This document shows, piece after piece, positions 1,362-14,257 of a stretch of 64,000 nucleotides of DNA (positions are counted from its first letter, which is position 1; every line of letters starts with the position of its first letter). The DNA lies in contig JAUJMV010000001.1 in NCBI GenBank assembly GCA_030446685.1, positions 18,273 to 82,272 on the forward strand. Direction: 5' to 3'. The notes beneath the pieces were generated by a model. That model made no database searches, was not told the DNA's origin, and saw nothing but the letters and a program-made list of their open reading frames with translations. This DNA is from Thermomicrobiales bacterium. Lineage in GTDB: Bacteria > Chloroflexota > Chloroflexia > Thermomicrobiales > CADCWN01. The position numbers and the translations under genes are program-made.

Positions 1362-1394
1362 TTTAAGCGAACCTTAACGGAGCCCCGCTAGTGT
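1362..1394 (+). promoter_or_regulatory. Weak TTNAC-type activator promoter
   Basis: A TTAAC half-site at 1374 lies exactly 15 bp before TAGTGT (1389-1394), with a degenerate half-site 12 bp upstream at 1362. This matches the last two positions of the phased arrays found elsewhere in the window, but the outer half-sites are missing. It would serve the P-loop gene starting at 1547. Confidence 0.35.
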
Positions 1395-1546
1395 GGGTGG
1401 TGTCACCGGGAGTGGCGCCGGCCGTCACCGGCGCTCTTCCGCTGGCGAAGCGGCGATGGCCGTTGGATCCGGGACGATGCCCGCTGGAAGGCGGCGACAG
1501 ACGGCTGTTGCCGACAGTCGCCAGGGTCTTGAGGAGGAGGACTCCC

Positions 1547-2677
1547 GTGCAGTCGCTGAACCACGATGCCGTCAAGCAGACCTACGGCGCGCGCGTGGTG
1601 CCGCTGTCGGAGATGGTCGGGGTCGCGCCGCTCGCCCACGCGCCACGGGCCGGTGACCTGATCGTCGCGGAGGTGCTGACGACCGGCCGGCACGATAAGA
1701 TCGAGGGCCGCTCCGGGCTGACGACGACCATCTTCCCCGGCAGCCGGTTCGTCGGCGTGTTCGGCAACCGCTACGCCACCGATCAGTACGAGGGGTACGT
1801 GCCGCGCGAGCCGGTGGAGGAGTGCGACCTGCTCTCGGTCGGGGGGGTCTGCGGCGCGGTCGCCTCGCGGTTCGACGGGTTCGCCGCGCCGACCCGGCTC
1901 CGGGTCGTGGGGGCGGTCCGCGACCGGCAGGGGCGGCCGCTCAACTCGCGCCGGTTCGGCCTGCCCGCCGACGATCGTGCCGGCGGGCACGACGGCCGCC
2001 GGGAGGCCGGGGTGATCCTGGTTGTCGGGTCCGCGATGAACTCGGGGAAGACGACGACGGTCGGGACGCTGGCGCGGGCGCTGACCGCCGCGGGGCGGCG
2101 GGTGGCCGCGGCGAAGGTGACCGGCACGGCGGCCGGCAAGGATGTCCGTTACTACGGCGACTGCGGGGCGAGCCCGGTCCTCGACTTCACCGACGCCGGC
2201 CATCCCTCGACCTATCTGCTCGACCCGCAGGAGCTGCTGGCGCTCGCGGCCGCGCTGATCGCGCGGCTGCGGGCCGACGGTCCCGACTACATCGTCGTCG
2301 AGATCGCCGACGGTATCTTCCAGCGGGAGACGCGGCTGCTGCTGGAGAGCGCGGACTTCCGCGCCGGCGTCGATCACGCCTTCTTCGCGGCGACCGACAG
2401 CCTGTCCGCGGAGTGCGGCGCGCGCCGCCTGCGCGAGTACGGGCTGCCGTTGCGCGCCGTGGCCGGGACGGTGACGCGCAGCCCGCTGGCGACCCGCGAG
2501 GCCGAGGAGGCGACCGGGGTCGCCTGCCTGAGCATCGGGCGCATGCTGGCGGGCGAGCTGCTGCCGCTGCTCCAGGGCGCGCGCGCGCCGGGCCGGGATA
2601 GGCTGGTGGCGACGCTGCCGCGGACCGCGGGCCTGTACGCGTTCGACGGGGCGGTGGCGGCCTTGCCGGATCGCTGA
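1547..2677 (+). CDS. P-loop NTPase-like protein (DUF1611 type)
   Basis: The frame is open further upstream, but the GTG at 1547 has a strong GAGGAGGAGG ribosome site seven bases before it, giving 376 residues. The N-terminal half (about 1-140) contains GDLIVAEVLTTGRHDKIEGR and a conserved-looking GSRFVGVFGNRYATDQYEG. The C-terminal half begins with a Walker A-like VVGSAMNSGKTTTVG around residue 165, followed by AAKVTGTAAGKDVRYYGDCG and YIVVEIADGIFQRET, as in small nucleotide-binding P-loop proteins of the MobB/DUF1611 kind. The substrate is unknown. It stands alone, preceded by a weak activator-type promoter. The P-loop call is firm; the family name is less so. Confidence 0.75.
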   Translation: MQSLNHDAVKQTYGARVVPLSEMVGVAPLAHAPRAGDLIVAEVLTTGRHDKIEGRSGLTTTIFPGSRFVGVFGNRYATDQYEGYVPREPVEECDLLSVGGVCGAVASRFDGFAAPTRLRVVGAVRDRQGRPLNSRRFGLPADDRAGGHDGRREAGVILVVGSAMNSGKTTTVGTLARALTAAGRRVAAAKVTGTAAGKDVRYYGDCGASPVLDFTDAGHPSTYLLDPQELLALAAALIARLRADGPDYIVVEIADGIFQRETRLLLESADFRAGVDHAFFAATDSLSAECGARRLREYGLPLRAVAGTVTRSPLATREAEEATGVACLSIGRMLAGELLPLLQGARAPGRDRLVATLPRTAGLYAFDGAVAALPDR

Positions 2678-2766: not shown

Positions 2767-4194
2767 GTGAGCCGATTGGGAGCCCTGGCGACGGATGCTG
2801 GAGTGGCCGACGCGCGTGCGGACGGGCGCCGGGCCAGCGGCGTGATGGAGCGGGAAGGGGGTGGGCGTCCGGTCGTGACGGGGCTGGTCTATCCGGGGCT
2901 GCCGCAAAACCCGGTGGACGGTCGGACGGCCGACCGGATCGTCCCGCGGGTCGCGCGCCTGCCGCGGCTGGCCCCGACGCCGGGGCGGCCGCTGCGGCTG
3001 CGCGGCGCGCTGGTGGAGGTGGTCAACCGCGGGGTGCTGGTGGAGCGCGACCCGGCGACGGGCGGGTCGCGGGGCGTGCCGATGGGGGACGCCGCGATCG
3101 GGGGCGATCCGGCGGCGGGGTTCCACGCCCGCTACCGGCCGCGGAACGGCGGCGTGCGGCCGCGCGACAACGAGCGGCTCGCCGGCGCGGGGAACGAGCA
3201 GGCGCTGGAGGGCGCGCGCTTCGGCGAGGTCAACGCCTACTACCACGCCGACCGGACGCTGGCCTACGCCAACGGCCTGCTGGCCGAACTGGGCGCCGCG
3301 TTGCTGCCGCACCTGCGGATCGTGGTGGAGAGTCACCCCTGCTCGCGCCTGCCCGGCCACGGCCAGGGCGACTGCGACCGGCGCGGCCGCAAGCCCGTCA
3401 CCTCCAGCGGCGGGCACTACCGGCGGCCCGACACGCGCAACCGCGATCCCCGCTTCGATCACGACTGGGCGGGGATGAACCCGACCGGCGAGGTCCACCT
3501 CGGCCCCGGCAACGGCCCCATCCTCGACGCCGGCGGCGCGCCGCTGCTGGTGGACGGCGCGCCCTACAACCGGAAGCCGTCGCACAACGCGGGGATCATC
3601 ATCCACGAGGTCGGCCACCACATCGTCAGCCACGTCGCCGACTTCCGCTGCAACCGGGACCGCCCGCCCGACCAGACCAGCCACCGCAAGATCCACCTGG
3701 ACGAGGGGTTCTGCGACTACTGGGCGGCGACGATCCTCGGCACGCCCGCGATCTACGCCTGGCACCGCGCGGGGGAGCCGCTCGCCGCGCGCGGCAACCG
3801 CGATCTGTCCGGCCCGCGCACGACCGCCGATTTCGTGCAGGGCGGGGACCCGCACGAGAACGGGAACATCTGGGCGTCGGCGTTGTGGGACCTGCGATCC
3901 GCGCTGGGGGCGAGCCGGCGGGCCGATCTGCTGGCGATGCAGATGCTGGTCCTCTGCGGGCGGATCGGCCCGGACAATCCGGCGCGGGACCGGGCGATCC
4001 GGGCGCGGAAGGTCCGGCGGAAGGACGAGTTCCGCGAGGGGCTGGCCCTGCTGCTGGCGGCCGACGACCTCCTCTCCGGCGGCGCGCACCGGGCGCTGAT
4101 CCGCGAGGTCTTCGCGGCGCGCGGGATCGATCTCGAGACGCCGGACCGGGCCTTCGGCCAGCGCCCAGGTCGGCACGGCCCGCCGGGGGGGTGA
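2767..4194 (+). CDS. Zinc metalloprotease with HEVGHH motif
   Basis: GTG start at 2767 behind GGAGATGAGGCG; 475 residues. The catalytic signature GIIIHEVGHHIVSH sits near residue 282, and a downstream HLDEGFCDYWAA supplies the third zinc ligand (Glu) typical of gluzincins such as the M4/M36 group. There is no signal peptide or membrane helix, so it is either cytoplasmic or exported by another route. The gene stops three bases before the ABC exporter start and so begins a tightly packed four-gene cassette with an exporter, a small membrane protein and an HTTM protein. Maturation of an exported product is a reasonable guess, but no precursor peptide was found. Confidence 0.8.
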   Translation: MSRLGALATDAGVADARADGRRASGVMEREGGGRPVVTGLVYPGLPQNPVDGRTADRIVPRVARLPRLAPTPGRPLRLRGALVEVVNRGVLVERDPATGGSRGVPMGDAAIGGDPAAGFHARYRPRNGGVRPRDNERLAGAGNEQALEGARFGEVNAYYHADRTLAYANGLLAELGAALLPHLRIVVESHPCSRLPGHGQGDCDRRGRKPVTSSGGHYRRPDTRNRDPRFDHDWAGMNPTGEVHLGPGNGPILDAGGAPLLVDGAPYNRKPSHNAGIIIHEVGHHIVSHVADFRCNRDRPPDQTSHRKIHLDEGFCDYWAATILGTPAIYAWHRAGEPLAARGNRDLSGPRTTADFVQGGDPHENGNIWASALWDLRSALGASRRADLLAMQMLVLCGRIGPDNPARDRAIRARKVRRKDEFREGLALLLAADDLLSGGAHRALIREVFAARGIDLETPDRAFGQRPGRHGPPGG

Positions 4195-4196
4195 CG

Positions 4197-5966
4197 ATGC
4201 TGGCGAAGCTGCGACGGTCGAAGACGGTGGCGACGCTGGTCCACCTGTGGCCGTTCCTCAGGCCGGAGGGCCGCTACCTCGGCTACGCGGTGGCGGTCAC
4301 GCTGGGCCTGACCGGGATCGAGGTGCTGACCCCGGTCCTGGTGGGCCTCTTCGTCGACGCGCTGCTCGGCGAGCTGGGCGACCCGGTCGGGCGGCCCTTC
4401 GGGGGCTGGACGGAGTACCGGCTGCTGCTCGCCCTGGCGGCGGCGGCACTGGCGCGCGGGGCGCTGCTAGCCTGGCAGCGCGCGCTGATGGGGCGGATCG
4501 GCCAGCGGGTGGCGGCGCGGATGCGCCGCAAGCTCTGGAGCCACCTACAGCGGCTGCCGCTCGATTACCTGCGCCGCCGCGGGCCGGGCCGGCTCCTGCT
4601 GCGCTTCATCAGCGACGCCCGCGCCGTCCAGCGCCTGGTGACCAACGGCGTCGTGCGCGTGACCCAGGATCTGCTGGTCGCGCTCGGGGTGGCGGTGGTG
4701 ATGCTGGCGATCAACTGGCGGATGGGGCTGGGGATGCTGCTGCTGGCGCCGGCCTTCGGCCTGATCTTCTGGCAGATGAACCCGCGGCTGCAGGAGGCCA
4801 GCCGCGCGACCCGCCGCCGCCGCAGCCGCCTCTCGGCCTACCTGAACGACCGGCTGGCCGGGATCGCGATCGTGAAGGCCCGGGTCGGGCACGAGGACGA
4901 GGTGGCGCGCTTCGCGGGCAAGAACCGCACCCTGACGCGGCGCGGCATCCGCCAGGCCGCGGTCGCCGCGCGGCTGCAGGGGCTGGCCGCGACGGTCGTG
5001 GCGCTGGGCGCCGTCCTGGCGCTGGCGCTGGCCTCGCGCGAGCTGGCGGCGGGCCGGTTGACCGGCGGGCAACTGGTCACCTTCTACACGCTGGTCGGCC
5101 TGCTGGGGCCGATCCTCCAGCGGGTGACGACGGCCGACCGCAACCTGCAGGAGGCGCAGATCTCGGTCGAGCGGCTGGCGACGACCCTGGCGCAGCGGCC
5201 CGAGGCCCCGCAGGGGGACCAGCGCCCGCCGCTGGTCGTCACCGACGGCACGGTCGCGTTCGAGGAGGTGTCCTTCGCTTTCCCGGACGGGCCGGCGGTG
5301 CTGGAGGGGGTGTCGCTGCTGGCGCGGCGCGGCGAGATCGTGGCGGTCGCCGGCGACAACGGCGCGGGCAAGAGCACCCTGCTGGAACTGCTGCCGCGGT
5401 TCCGCACGCCGACCGGGGGGCGGATCGCGATCGACGGCCAGGACACCGGCCAGGTGTCGCTGGCCTCGCTGCGGGCGCAGATCGGCCTGGTCGCGCAGGA
5501 GGCGCCGCTGATCGACGGGACGCTGGCCGAGAATGTTGCCTACGGGAGCGACGAGGAGGCGACGGAGGAGGGGTTGACCCTGGCCGCGCGGCTGGCCGGG
5601 CTCGACCGGGTCGTCGCCGGCCTGCCCGACGGGTGGGAGACGAGGGTGAGCGAGGGGCGGCGGTCGCTCTCGCGCGGGCAGCGGCAGCGCGTCGCGCTCG
5701 CCCGCGCGCTGCTCGGCGATCCGCCGATCCTCCTGCTGGACGAGGCGACGGCGTCGCTCGACGCGGCGACGGAGGAGGCCTTCATGGAGGAGTTGCGCGC
5801 GCTGGCCCGGCGGAAGACCGTCATCATCGCCACCCACCGCCCGGCGACGCTGCTGGCGGCCGACCGGGCCTACCGGCTCGCAGGGGGGCGCGCCGTCGAG
5901 GTGCGCCCGGCGGCGGCGCGCCAGCCGGTGCGGGTGTCGGCCGGGGGGATCGGGGGGCAGCCATGA
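4197..5966 (+). CDS. ABC exporter, fused membrane and ATPase domains
   Basis: 589 residues from ATG 4197; a GTG at 4191 is also possible and would overlap the previous stop. The N-terminal ~310 residues form the six-helix exporter domain (GYAVAVTLGLTGIEVLTPVL, LLLALAAAALARGALLAWQ, ALGVAVVMLAINWRMGLG). The C-terminal nucleotide-binding domain has Walker A GDNGAGKST, Q-loop VAQEAPLI, signature LSRGQRQRVAL, Walker B ILLLDEATASLD and switch His in IIATHRPAT. It belongs to the lipid/peptide/drug half-transporter class and would work as a homodimer. It overlaps the next start by ATGA, so translation is probably coupled. The substrate cannot be read from sequence. Confidence 0.93.
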   Translation: MLAKLRRSKTVATLVHLWPFLRPEGRYLGYAVAVTLGLTGIEVLTPVLVGLFVDALLGELGDPVGRPFGGWTEYRLLLALAAAALARGALLAWQRALMGRIGQRVAARMRRKLWSHLQRLPLDYLRRRGPGRLLLRFISDARAVQRLVTNGVVRVTQDLLVALGVAVVMLAINWRMGLGMLLLAPAFGLIFWQMNPRLQEASRATRRRRSRLSAYLNDRLAGIAIVKARVGHEDEVARFAGKNRTLTRRGIRQAAVAARLQGLAATVVALGAVLALALASRELAAGRLTGGQLVTFYTLVGLLGPILQRVTTADRNLQEAQISVERLATTLAQRPEAPQGDQRPPLVVTDGTVAFEEVSFAFPDGPAVLEGVSLLARRGEIVAVAGDNGAGKSTLLELLPRFRTPTGGRIAIDGQDTGQVSLASLRAQIGLVAQEAPLIDGTLAENVAYGSDEEATEEGLTLAARLAGLDRVVAGLPDGWETRVSEGRRSLSRGQRQRVALARALLGDPPILLLDEATASLDAATEEAFMEELRALARRKTVIIATHRPATLLAADRAYRLAGGRAVEVRPAAARQPVRVSAGGIGGQP

Positions 5967-6445
5967 GCGACGCGGCCGGCGCCCCGACGGGGAAGGGGTT
6001 CGCCAGCGCCCTGAGCCTCGCGCTGATCGGGGCGGTGCTCCTGCCGATCGCGGAGAACTGGCGGCGGAAGCCGAAGGACAGCTTCCCGCTGTCCTACTAT
6101 CCGATGTTCTGCAAGCGGCGCGGCGAGTGCGAGCGCGTCACCTACCTGGTGGGGATCGACGCGCGGGGAGGGCGCCACCTCCTCTCCTACCACTGCGCCG
6201 GGTCGGGCGGGTTGAACCAGGTCCGCCGGCAGATCCGGCGGTTCGCGCGGCGGGACGGCGCCGCCGAGGAGCTGTGCGCGTCGGTCGCGACGCGGCTCGC
6301 CCGGCGGGGGGGGCGCCACGCCGACCTGGTCGCGATCCAGCTCGTCACCGGCAAGTACCGGCTGGATGACTTCTTCGCCGGGCGGCAGGAGCCGGAGTGG
6401 GAGCGGGTGCATGCCACCTGGCGGGCGCGCGGGGTGGGGCGATGA
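5963..6445 (+). CDS. Small membrane-anchored protein coupled to HTTM gene
   Basis: 160 residues; the ATG at 5963 overlaps the exporter stop and its TGA overlaps the next ATG, so it is translationally coupled on both sides. One N-terminal helix (ASALSLALIGAVLLPIAEN) is followed by a soluble part with SFPLSYYPMFCKRRGECERV, LVGIDARGG and GSGGLNQVRRQIRRF. The Pro-Met-Phe and GLNQVRRQ motifs look conserved and I recall similar short proteins beside HTTM genes in other bacteria, but I cannot name a family. The position suggests it is an accessory subunit of the HTTM protein. No enzymatic motif is visible. Confidence 0.7.
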   Translation: MSDAAGAPTGKGFASALSLALIGAVLLPIAENWRRKPKDSFPLSYYPMFCKRRGECERVTYLVGIDARGGRHLLSYHCAGSGGLNQVRRQIRRFARRDGAAEELCASVATRLARRGGRHADLVAIQLVTGKYRLDDFFAGRQEPEWERVHATWRARGVGR

Positions 6446-7415
6446 TGGGGCTGCTCCGGGCGCTCGATCGCTTCTGGTTCGCCGGCGCGCCCGCCGCGCG
6501 GCCGGCCCTCCTGCGGGTGCTGATCGGCGGCTACCTCCTCGTCTACCTGGGGCGGCGCTACGGGATGTTGTTGCGGGTGGCCCGTTCCGACCCGGCGCTG
6601 TTCAGGCCGGTCGGCGTGGTGACGGTCCTGGAGCGGCCGCTGCCGGTGGGGGTCTTCCGGGGCCTGCTGCGCGCGACGCTGCTGGTGAACGTGGCGTTCG
6701 TCCTCGGCTGGCGGCACCGCCAGACCGGGCCGCTCTTCGCCGGGCTGCTGCTCTGGGTCATGTCCTACCGCAATTCCTGGTCGATGATCTACCACAACGA
6801 CAACGTCCTGGTGTTGCACGGGATCATCCTGGGGCTGACGCCGGCGGCGGACGCGCTCTCGCTGGACGCCGCCCGCGGCCGCGGCCCCACCCCCGATCGG
6901 GGGGCGGGGGGCCGGCGGGCGACTGGCGGCACGGCTGGCCGGTGCGACTGATGACGACCGTGACGCTGCTGACCTATTTCCTGGCGGGGGTCGCGAAGCT
7001 GGCGGGGCCGCTCGGGTCGGGATGGGCCGGCGGCGAGGCGCTGCGGGGCCAGGTCGCGGTCGACGGCCTGCGCAAGGCGCTGCTGGGCGAGGGCGCGACG
7101 CCGCTGGCCCACGCTTTGTACGACAAGGTGTGGCTCTTCCGGCTGATGGGCGCCGGCTCGCTGGTGCTGGAGCTGGCGGCGCCGCTGGCGCTGGCGGACA
7201 GGCGGCTGGCGCGCTGCTGGGCGCTCGGGGCCTGGTTGCTGCACTGGGGCATCTATGCCGTGATGGGGATCACCTTCCGCTACCAGCTCTCGGGCCTGAT
7301 CTACGCCTCGTTCTTCGACCTCGAGCGCGCGCTGGCGAGCCTGGCTCCGCCCGCCCCGATAACGCGCGGTGCTACGGCCGGCGGGCGAGGACCCAGAGCC
7401 ACGTTTCGCCGCTGA
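6442..7415 (+). CDS. HTTM-domain membrane protein (gamma-carboxylase-like), frameshifted
   Basis: Reads from ATG 6442 (second ATG at 6445) as MMGLLRALDRFWFAG, RPALLRVLIGGYLLVYLG and SWSMIYHNDNVLVLHGIIL, then runs out of frame to a TGA at 6951. A shift near 6898-6912, inside G6-type runs, restores HGWPVRLMTTVTLLTYF, GITFRYQLSGLIYASFF and the rest to 7415. Adding one base joins the halves into roughly 320 residues with several membrane helices. This matches the HTTM family, related to the membrane part of vitamin-K-dependent gamma-glutamyl carboxylase. The end overlaps the convergent methyltransferase by 44 bp. The shift may be a sequencing undercount. Confidence 0.72.
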
Positions 7416-8001
7416 TAGCGAGCCTTTCGGCGCGCTCGATAGTGAATCCGGCGCGGCGCAGGAGGGTAAGGTTGGTGTCGGCGTCGTAATGGCTCCACCA
7501 CATCGGCGCGCCCCAGCCGAGCCAGTCGCGCTCCGCGCCCTCCCAGGCGCCGATCGCCCAGTTCGCCAGGAAGCGCCCGCCGGGGCGCAGCCAGCGGGCG
7601 ATCCGCTCGGCCAGCGCCGGGTGCTCCTCGCGCGGGACGTGGATGATCGAGTAACAGGCGACGACCGCGCTGAACGAGGCGGGCGGGAAGTCGACCGCCG
7701 TCATGTCGGCGCGGCGGAAGGTGGCGCCCGGGACGTGCCGGCGGGCCAGTTCGAGTTGCCGCGCGGAGAGGTCCACGCCGGTGACGGCGAAGCGTTCCGC
7801 CAGCCACTGCGTCACCGGCACGCCCGCGCCGCAGCCGAGGTCGAGGGCCGGGGCGCCGTCCGGGAGGTCGCGCGCCAGGTCTTCGAGCAGATCGAGCAAC
7901 GCCGGGTCGAGCGGACCCTTGCCGGCGAGGTAATGCTCGGCGATCCGGTCGTAGCCGGACTCGACGATCGCCCTCGGCGCCGGATCATCCCGTGAGGCCA
8001 T
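7372..8001 (-). CDS. Class I SAM-dependent methyltransferase
   Basis: 209 residues from ATG 8001. The SAM-binding motif ALDLGCGAGVPVTQWLAERF is near residue 52, followed by the acidic strand end VTGVDLSARQLELARR, then RADMTAVDFPPASFSAVVAC (motif III region) and LRPGGRFLANWAIG. This order is typical of small-molecule Rossmann methyltransferases of the Methyltransf_11/25 type. It starts three bases after the end of the HAD gene, so the two form a pair read on the minus strand. The substrate is unknown. Confidence 0.88.
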   Translation of the reverse strand: MASRDDPAPRAIVESGYDRIAEHYLAGKGPLDPALLDLLEDLARDLPDGAPALDLGCGAGVPVTQWLAERFAVTGVDLSARQLELARRHVPGATFRRADMTAVDFPPASFSAVVACYSIIHVPREEHPALAERIARWLRPGGRFLANWAIGAWEGAERDWLGWGAPMWWSHYDADTNLTLLRRAGFTIERAERLAISGETWLWVLARRP

Positions 8002-12674: not shown

Positions 12675-13163
12675 GTGCGAGACCGGTATGTCCTGCACCG
12701 CTACCAGTTAGCGGCCACCACGCGCCCCTCGGATGTCGGCGACATCTTCGCGATCAACCCGATCCGCCGCTCCCTGGCGGCGATCCTGATCTCCCTCGGC
12801 CTGATCGTCGGCCCGCTGACCTTCATGCGGGGCGACGCGCAGGTGGCGGTGCTCCTGGCGACCTCCTGGTTTTCCTTCAGCACGCTGGTGATGTGCATCC
12901 CGGTGCTGCTGATCTCGCTGCTCGAGGAGGGGTGGAACCAGCTCCAGCGGCGGGTCTGGCCGACGATCGACGAACTCGATCTCAGCCCGCGCGCGCGCCA
13001 CCTCCTCCACCGCCACGGCTTCGTGACGATCGGCAAGGTCGAGCGGACGCCGGACGGCGTGCTGCTCCTGCTGTCCAACATGGACAGCCAGACCCTGCAC
13101 GAGATCCGCCGCAGCGTCAACCTCTACCGCTACCAGAAGTGGCAGGAAAACGGCTTCCGGTAA
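12675..13163 (+). CDS. Two-helix membrane protein with RNA polymerase alpha-CTD-like domain
   Basis: The GTG at 12675 has AAGGTGA eight bases before it; a GTG at 12651 is also in frame. The 162-residue product has two membrane helices (SLAAILISLGLIVGPLTF and TSWFSFSTLVMCIPVLLI), then a C-terminal helix-hairpin-helix domain, IDELDLSPRARHLLHRHGF ... SNMDSQTLHEIRRSV. This closely follows the RNA polymerase alpha C-terminal domain pattern (IEELDLSVRSYNCLKRAGI ... LGRKSLEEV). The domain would face the cytoplasm. Whether it binds DNA or protein is unknown. The stop codon is the first base of a long inverted repeat. Confidence 0.7.
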   Translation: MRDRYVLHRYQLAATTRPSDVGDIFAINPIRRSLAAILISLGLIVGPLTFMRGDAQVAVLLATSWFSFSTLVMCIPVLLISLLEEGWNQLQRRVWPTIDELDLSPRARHLLHRHGFVTIGKVERTPDGVLLLLSNMDSQTLHEIRRSVNLYRYQKWQENGFR

Positions 13164-13295
13164 GTACGAAGTACGAGGTACGAAGTACGAACAATACCGG
13201 CCCCGGCTGTGCTATAACCTCCGCATCGTGCGTGAGGGCGGGCACCGATGGGGCTGCGGCGCCTGTTCGTACTTCGTACCTCGTACTTCGTACTT
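13162..13295. repeat. 30-bp perfect inverted repeat around a 74-bp loop
   Basis: The left arm 13162-13191 is the exact reverse complement of the right arm 13266-13295. Each arm is built from near-identical 7-mers (TTCGTAC, TTCGTAC, CTCGTAC, TTCGTAC, TT). The left arm begins inside the TAA of the preceding gene and the right arm ends 17 bases before the beta-lactamase-like start. The loop holds a TATAAC -10-like box. A second element of the same design, with a different 7-mer, is at 43210-43319. Confidence 0.9.
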
Positions 13296-13312
13296 CACGC
13301 AGGGGGTGCAGG

Positions 13313-14257
13313 GTGGACGCGTCGGGGGTGCGGGCGCTGCAGGGGCGGGTCGAGGCGATCGCCGGGCGGGTCGACGGGGTCGTGGGGGTGGCGGCGAAGG
13401 ACCTCGCGAGCGGCGCGGAGGTGCTGGTCAACGCGGATGTGGCCTTCCCGACCGCCAGCGTGATGAAGGTCCCGATCCTCGTCGCGCTCTACCGCGAGGC
13501 CGAGGCGGGGCGGATCGACCTCGACCGACGGCTCGCGTTCGAGGAGCGGCATCTGGTGCCGGGTTCCGGTGTGTTGCAGGACCTGACGTTCGGGCTGGCG
13601 CCGACGATCAAGGATCTGGCGACGCTGATGATCACCGTCAGCGACAACGCCGCGACCGACATGCTCCTCGACCTGCTCGGCCCCGACGCGCTCGCGGCGA
13701 CGCTGCGCGACCACGGGCTCACCCGCACGACGCTGCCGCTGACCGTGCGCGGGCTCCTCTACAGCATGGTCGGGCTGGATCCCGCCGATCCGGCGCACAC
13801 CTACGCGCTCTTCAAGGAGCGGTCGCGGGCCGGGCGGATCGACTGGGGGAGCCGGGCGCTGGCCGACGCGGACAACAATCTCACGACGCCGCGCGACCTC
13901 AACCGGCTGCTGGAGGACCTCGCCACGGGGCGCGCGCTCGGCGCGGCCTCGAACGCGGCGATCATCGACATCATGAAGCGGCAGAAGTACAACACGATTA
14001 TTCCCCTGCACCTGCCGGCGGAGACGGAGGTGGCGCACAAGACCGGCAGCATCCGGGGCGTGCGCAACGACGCCGGGATCGTCTACGCGCCGCGCGGCCC
14101 CTACCTGCTCTCCCTCTTCTCCAAGCGGCTGGGCGACCAGGTCGCTGGGGCGGCGGCGCTGGCGGAGATCAGCAAGGTCGTCTGGGAGGGGTTCGTCGGC
14201 CCGATTCCCGCGCCGCGCTACGGCCCCGATCCCAGCGCCGAGGCACGGATCGTGTAG
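13313..14257 (+). CDS. Class A beta-lactamase-like serine hydrolase
   Basis: 314 residues from GTG 13313. It has the three class A motifs in order: the nucleophile and general base in FPTASVMKVPI (SxxK), the SDN triad in TVSDNAATDMLLD, and AHKTGSIRGVRND (KTG). An omega-loop Glu comparable to E166 is not obvious. There is no signal peptide or lipobox, which is unusual, since true beta-lactamases act outside the membrane. It may be a cytoplasmic esterase/peptidase of the same fold, or the start may be misplaced, although the inverted repeat directly upstream limits extension. Confidence 0.82.
   Translation: MDASGVRALQGRVEAIAGRVDGVVGVAAKDLASGAEVLVNADVAFPTASVMKVPILVALYREAEAGRIDLDRRLAFEERHLVPGSGVLQDLTFGLAPTIKDLATLMITVSDNAATDMLLDLLGPDALAATLRDHGLTRTTLPLTVRGLLYSMVGLDPADPAHTYALFKERSRAGRIDWGSRALADADNNLTTPRDLNRLLEDLATGRALGAASNAAIIDIMKRQKYNTIIPLHLPAETEVAHKTGSIRGVRNDAGIVYAPRGPYLLSLFSKRLGDQVAGAAALAEISKVVWEGFVGPIPAPRYGPDPSAEARIV

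What the first reader, a model, noticed from the sequence alone, without database searches (positions are those of the whole stretch)
2767..7415. Tightly coupled cassette: zinc metalloprotease, ABC exporter, small anchor protein, HTTM protein
The four genes overlap or are separated by two bases. HTTM is related to the gamma-glutamyl carboxylase membrane domain; with an exporter and a protease the set resembles a system that modifies, trims and exports a product. No precursor peptide was found near by. I am not aware of a description of this combination.
Basis: inference. Interest (0 to 1): 0.6.

Follow-up and report, generated by a model that had tools for sequence, protein, structure and literature searches.

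The report
Conserved protease-exporter-split carboxylase-like gene cassette
A set of five tightly packed bacterial genes, found in variants in at least five phyla, pairs an ATPase, a zinc protease and an exporter with a two-piece membrane enzyme related to the human vitamin K-dependent carboxylase that activates blood-clotting proteins; what it acts on is unknown.

Summary
It has a fifth gene upstream, N (1391-2677), a P-loop NTPase. The HTTM gene H is frameshifted between about 6877 and 6927. The order is N, P (M36-like zinc protease), A (MsbA-type exporter), S (small protein), H.

Among 53 HTTM loci, S lies directly upstream of H in 49 of 50 testable cases. The exporter or N lies within 5.5 kb in 25 of 53, in five phyla. 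All six clear P relatives found sit beside N/A or S-H. In Acidobacteria and one planctomycete the protease slot holds an unrelated M14-type zinc peptidase.

H's predicted structure matches only human GGCX in the PDB. Profile alignment puts GGCX's catalytic base K218 on a lysine invariant in all 31 H sequences. S matches no Pfam family. It resembles GGCX's detached TM9 plus lumenal domain, but that match is not statistically established.

Best reading: a two-subunit, quinone-dependent, GGCX-like membrane enzyme (S-H) coupled to a cytosolic ATPase-protease-exporter module that trims and exports a product. No conserved precursor peptide was found. Substrate and reaction are unknown.

The parts
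1391..2677 (+).
   Evidence: weak CbiA/DUF1611/MobB; 19 relatives, P-loop GxxMxxGKTT and ADGxxQxET conserved
2767..4194 (+). P: M36-like gluzincin zinc protease, no signal peptide seen; probable start ATG 2845
   Evidence: M36 23.1 bits, cut-off 23.3; HExGHH and DEGxCD invariant in 4 relatives; N-P-A order in two other Chloroflexota
4197..5966 (+). A: MsbA-type ABC exporter half-transporter, no peptidase domain
   Evidence: (60% identity to the exporter next to S-H in a genome of another class)
5963..6445 (+). S: 160-aa protein, one N-terminal membrane helix, conserved DxFPLSYYPMF and GGxNQVRRQ; near-constant partner of H
   Evidence: no Pfam family in 33 members; model, pLDDT 87.5; 49 of 50 loci
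6442..6951 (+). H, first half: HTTM domain TM1-4, YRNSWSMIYHND; the frame is lost before the end of this stretch
6927..7415 (+). H, second half, other frame: TM5-8 with the lysine equivalent to GGCX K218 (YFLAGVAK) and LLHWGI
6877..6927 (+). stretch in which the reading frame of H is lost (G/C runs in a variable linker)

Best explanation
A recurrent two-module system. Module 1 (S-H) is a two-subunit membrane enzyme of the vitamin K-dependent carboxylase (GGCX) superfamily. H is the quinone-binding transmembrane part with the catalytic lysine. S supplies one membrane helix and the extracytoplasmic domain that in GGCX is fused after TM8 (hypothesis). A DCC-type thiol-disulfide protein, fused or adjacent in many genomes, may recycle the quinone. 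Module 2 (N, zinc protease, A) is a cytosolic P-loop ATPase and a trimming peptidase feeding an MsbA-type exporter. Together they would trim, export and, on the outer face, modify a product by quinone-driven proton abstraction: carboxylation or another carbanion reaction. Shown: gene linkage, families, predicted fold of H, invariance of the active-site lysine. Inferred: quinone use, S as the missing GGCX domain, order of steps, chemistry, substrate. In this genome the H gene is interrupted by a frameshift or an assembly error.
For: S is directly upstream of H in 49 of 50 loci. N/A are linked to S-H in 25 of 53 loci in five phyla, with only 3 comparable exporters farther out in 289 kb of flank. 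P occurs in only 3 of 400 Chloroflexota genomes, each beside N and A, and in three Pseudonocardia loci beside S-H or in N-P-A order. An M14-type zinc peptidase fills the slot in L024, L056 and L030. The H model hits only GGCX with E below 0.001. H profile vs VKGC profile: probability 97.6%, E 4e-12. K218, W223, H287 and F299 map to residues invariant in 31 H sequences. K218 is the catalytic base (PMC12589487). DCC is fused or adjacent.
Against: S vs the GGCX lumenal domain is not significant beyond the membrane helix, and the S model has no significant PDB match. GGCX H160 has no unambiguous counterpart, and F286/F294 are Met in H. Many S-H pairs lack N/A nearby (Brachybacterium, Agrococcus, others), and N-protease-A occurs without S-H. 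No conserved precursor was found. H is frameshifted here.
Confidence: 0.5

Rival explanations
1. Two independent modules that travel together: S-H is a quinone redox or modification enzyme of cell-envelope glycans or lipids, and N-protease-A is a separate exporter; they share no substrate.
For: S-like/HTTM pairs occur in polysaccharide loci: a second pair in this genome at contig C76 and Novosphingobium plasmid pLA5. N-A occurs with TPR-CHAT and S8 subtilase without any S-H relative in the genome.
Against: Repeated adjacency of N/A with S-H in five phyla, often with overlapping genes.
Confidence: 0.25
2. A RiPP cluster related to linaridins (which carry an HTTM gene and no leader protease), with a precursor encoded elsewhere or too divergent to be seen.
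For: Linaridin loci contain an HTTM-domain gene (PMC9927463); exporter and protease would fit leader removal and export.
Against: No conserved short ORF around the loci; no linaridin family among the scanned window proteins; linaridin clusters are reported to lack a leader protease gene.
Confidence: 0.1
3. Synthesis and export of a glutamate-rich polymer, such as a poly-gamma-glutamate-like capsule, that S-H carboxylates.
For: In one genome P is fused to a PGA_cap (CapA/PgsA-like) domain; AstE/AspA-like enzymes act on acidic acyl amino acids and GGCX acts on Glu (general knowledge of these families).
Against: Single fusion; no polymer synthase seen in the cassette.
Confidence: 0.08
4. Chance operon of one genome.
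For: Only a minority of Chloroflexota carry it.
Against: Linkage recurs in five phyla.
Confidence: 0.02

Closest known systems
Vitamin K-dependent gamma-glutamyl carboxylase (GGCX/VKGC; Pfam HTTM PF05090 + VKGC_lumenal_dom PF22777)
   Same: H has the HTTM fold, aligns with GGCX TM1-8 along its whole length, and keeps the K218, W223, H287 and F299 equivalents
   Different: H lacks the lumenal domain; a separate small protein S stands beside it; H160 equivalent unclear; two pocket Phe replaced by Met; linked to an exporter and a protease. Full-length VKGC proteins also exist in bacteria, some in the same genomes
Linaridin RiPP clusters
   Same: An HTTM gene is present (PMC9927463)
   Different: No precursor found here; a protease gene is present here
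M36 fungalysin proteases
   Same: HExxH and a downstream DEG motif as zinc ligands
   Different: Just below the Pfam cut-off in the window; no signal peptide or prodomain seen; linked to N and A
MsbA / type I exporters
   Same: Membrane domain + ATPase half-transporter
   Different: Far below the MsbA equivalog cut-off (327.7 vs 602); no peptidase domain
DUF1611 / MobB / BioD P-loop proteins
   Same: P-loop, weak profile similarity
   Different: All below family cut-offs; own conserved motifs

Membership tests
VKGC/GGCX | HTTM transmembrane domain | tested here: met
   Pfam HTTM over cut-off in an intact relative and E <= 0.01 in 21 of 31; fold match only to GGCX
VKGC/GGCX | Catalytic base K218 | tested here: met
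   K194 invariant in 31 of 31, aligned to K218; present in the window's second half of H
VKGC/GGCX | Quinone-pocket residues W223, F286, F294, F299 | tested here: inconclusive
   W223 and F299 kept (and H287); F286 and F294 mostly or always Met
VKGC/GGCX | H160 that positions the Glu | tested here: inconclusive
   Region gapped in the alignment; an invariant His lies nearby
VKGC/GGCX | Lumenal propeptide-binding domain in the same chain (PF22777) | tested here: not met
   H ends after TM8; no S or H member hits PF22777, although human GGCX does
VKGC/GGCX | Lumenal domain supplied in trans by S | tested here: inconclusive
   Collinear hhalign alignment, SYYPMF on SWDMMV, but not above a TM-preserving null
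VKGC/GGCX | Quinone-dependent carboxylation | not testable with these tools
   needs biochemistry
Linaridin RiPP cluster | Precursor peptide gene | tested here: not met
   no conserved short ORF; a divergent or distant precursor would be missed
Linaridin RiPP cluster | LinL homologue | tested here: inconclusive
   no such family among scanned window proteins; presence of a LinL model in the libraries not checked
M36 peptidase | Pfam score over cut-off | tested here: inconclusive
   23.1 vs 23.3 in the window; 31.4 in L103
M36 peptidase | Zinc ligands HExxH...E | tested here: met
   invariant in 4 relatives
MsbA equivalog | NCBIfam cut-off | tested here: not met
   327.7 vs 602
DUF1611 / MobB / CbiA | Pfam cut-offs | tested here: not met

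The most novel reading that the evidence does not exclude
S-H is a split vitamin K carboxylase: H carries TM1-8 and the catalytic lysine, S carries the detached TM9, gate methionine and substrate-binding domain. Several bacterial phyla use it to modify a product that a dedicated ATPase-protease-exporter module trims and secretes, giving a bacterial counterpart of the blood-clotting modification with its own secretion line.
Probability: 0.35. Interest if true: 0.85.

Novelty: new variant of a known kind. Interest (0 to 1): 0.62.

Why it matters
I found no described function for the bacterial short HTTM proteins outside linaridin clusters in the held literature, and the small partner S belongs to no Pfam family. 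If S-H is a two-chain relative of GGCX, cultured carriers (Agaribacillus, Pseudonocardia, Agrococcus, Brachybacterium) could show what the bacterial quinone-driven reaction acts on and how the lumenal domain is used. The linked protease and exporter point to where a substrate may be sought.

Tried and rejected
Viral contigs and plasmids for S or H: nothing in viral contigs, one distant plasmid hit. The PDB by sequence with H profiles did not reach GGCX; fold search did. HMMER and hhalign with shuffled controls did not make S = lumenal domain significant. The fold search with S gave only weak T-fold-like matches of low TM-score. Short-ORF search for a precursor gave no conserved family, but it did reveal what looks by eye like a DCC-type gene downstream in some loci. 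A CHAT gene like those of other carriers was not found near the window (CHAT only on other contigs). P by sequence had no PDB relative. The four-copy weak S hits in G146 and G481 were not followed up; I treated them as probable chance. A motif scan for S-like partners of distant HTTM genes used a faulty pattern and says nothing.

Full report
Observation. The window holds, on the + strand, N (1391-2677), P (2767-4194, probable start ATG 2845), A (4197-5966), S (5963-6445) and H (from 6442). P to A is 2 bases; A/S and S/H overlap as ATGA. H is not a single frame: its first half is in the frame 6442-6951, its second half in the frame ending at 7415. Both halves are 59% identical to an intact relative and both score about 228 bits against the H profile as separate places. 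The frame is lost in a variable, G/C-rich linker between TM4 and TM5. I cannot tell a mutation from an assembly error.

Families. P: M36-like, 23.1 bits with a cut-off of 23.3; A: ABC_membrane and ABC_tran; H: weak HTTM for the first half; N: weak P-loop (CbiA, DUF1611, MobB); S: nothing. An alignment of P with three relatives keeps HExGHH and DEGxCD, read here as the gluzincin zinc ligands. Thirty-three S proteins match no Pfam family, while DxFPLSYYPMF and GGxNQVRRQ are conserved. N forms a family of its own with a conserved P-loop GxxMxxGKTT and ADGxxQxET.

Relatives of the pair. S relatives were found in two genomes of the order and, next to a 60%-identical exporter and an intact H, in a genome of another class. 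A scan of 84,980 species genomes with the H alignment gave 53 loci; three of these (L018, L025, L027) carry S-H sequences that appear to be the same as those first met as L009, L003 and L004. S lies directly upstream of H in 49 of 50 loci with enough upstream sequence; the exception is L053.

Linkage of the rest. Gene maps show N-A-S-H in Chloroflexota (L020), an actinobacterial MAG (L022) and Acidobacteria (L024 with M14 inserted, L030); N-A-[M14]-S-H in a planctomycete (L056); N-A-[FAD oxidoreductase]-S-H in Geodermatophilaceae (L032); S-H, DUF2490, N-A in Bacteroidota (L029, L036, L043, L045); and S-H then N-P-A in Pseudonocardia (L041). Counting only hits over fixed scores, the exporter or N lies within 5.5 kb in 25 of 53 loci, although many contigs end early. 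Beyond 5.5 kb only 3 comparable exporters occur in 289 kb. Exporters cut by contig ends (L021, L023, L068) fell below the score and are not counted. Taxon names are those of the record titles.

The protease. P relatives are rare: 3 of 400 Chloroflexota genomes (this one, G296, G361), all beside N and A, and three Pseudonocardia loci. In G296 P is fused to a PGA_cap domain. In three other loci from Acidobacteria and Planctomycetes the same neighbourhood has an M14/AstE-like zinc peptidase. In G071 and G088 N-A goes with TPR-CHAT and S8 subtilase, as in L022. A slot filled by unrelated peptidases is the best support for a trimming role, but it is inference.

Two modules. G071, G088 and G361 (96-99% complete) have N-A but no H relative anywhere. 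Conversely many actinobacterial S-H pairs have no N/A near. The cassette is therefore a frequent union of two modules rather than an obligate unit.

H and GGCX. An AlphaFold model of an intact H (pLDDT 88.5) has GGCX as its only convincing PDB match: 14 entries with E below 0.001 and a fifteenth at 0.0018, TM-score over the query 0.56-0.63. Bacterial full-length VKGC proteins were collected with PF22777. H profile against VKGC profile gives probability 97.6% and E 4e-12. GGCX K218, the base that deprotonates the vitamin K hydroquinone (PMC12589487), falls on K194, invariant in 31 H sequences; W223, H287 and F299 also fall on invariant positions, while F286 and F294 correspond to Met; H160 cannot be placed.

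S and the lumenal domain. In GGCX the transmembrane domain ends with TM9, followed by a linker with M401/M402 that separates the two pockets, and the propeptide-binding domain. S has one helix, then SYYPMF, then a predicted beta-beta-alpha-alpha-beta-beta domain. hhalign aligns S with this segment and puts SYYPMF on SWDMMV, both against single GGCX and against the VKGC profile. The score does not exceed a null that keeps the membrane helix, HMMER shows no excess over shuffles, and the S model has no significant PDB match. I treat this as a hypothesis at about even odds. Divergent HTTM genes also have an S-like partner with the same kind of motif: contig C76 of this genome (HWPFSHYPMYS) and plasmid pLA5 (FPFMWYPMYA).

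DCC. A DCC-type thiol-disulfide domain is fused to H in four of the aligned Bacteroidota sequences, lies next to H in L024, L023, L025 and L068, and DUF393 follows HTTM on pLA5. By analogy with VKOR it could recycle the quinone; this is inference.

Precursor. No conserved short ORF family was found around the loci. Linaridin clusters also use an HTTM protein (PMC9927463), so a peptide product remains possible.

Verdict. The finding is real, extended by one gene, corrected for a broken H, and given a specific enzymatic reading for S-H. Substrate and reaction remain open.

Noticed in passing
G000 contig C76 near 69 kb (L001 1204-2840, - strand): A second HTTM gene in the same genome with its own S-like partner (motif HWPFSHYPMYS), beside a flippase-like and a methyltransferase-like gene.
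   Followed up: partly
L102, L108, L022, L030, L054, L024: Recurrent company of TPR-CHAT, often with S8 subtilase or an ECF sigma factor, next to N-A; a literature search for CHAT domain + subtilase + TPR found nothing.
   Followed up: partly
L105 7958-9067 and L106 7490-8572: A distant N relative sits directly before what look by eye like pyrB-carA-carB pyrimidine genes in two other Chloroflexota genomes.
   Followed up: no
L103 2927-5401: P domain fused to a PGA_cap (CapA-like) domain in one open frame.
   Followed up: no
L104 4867-5250: Small protein of peptidase-inhibitor family I36, with an apparent signal peptide, directly after the exporter of an N-P-A set.
   Followed up: no
window 12893-14257: Open frame that by eye carries serine beta-lactamase-like motifs (SVMK, SDN, KTG); not scanned.
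   Followed up: no
window 7372-8001, - strand: Class I methyltransferase gene overlapping the 3' end of H in convergent orientation.
   Followed up: no
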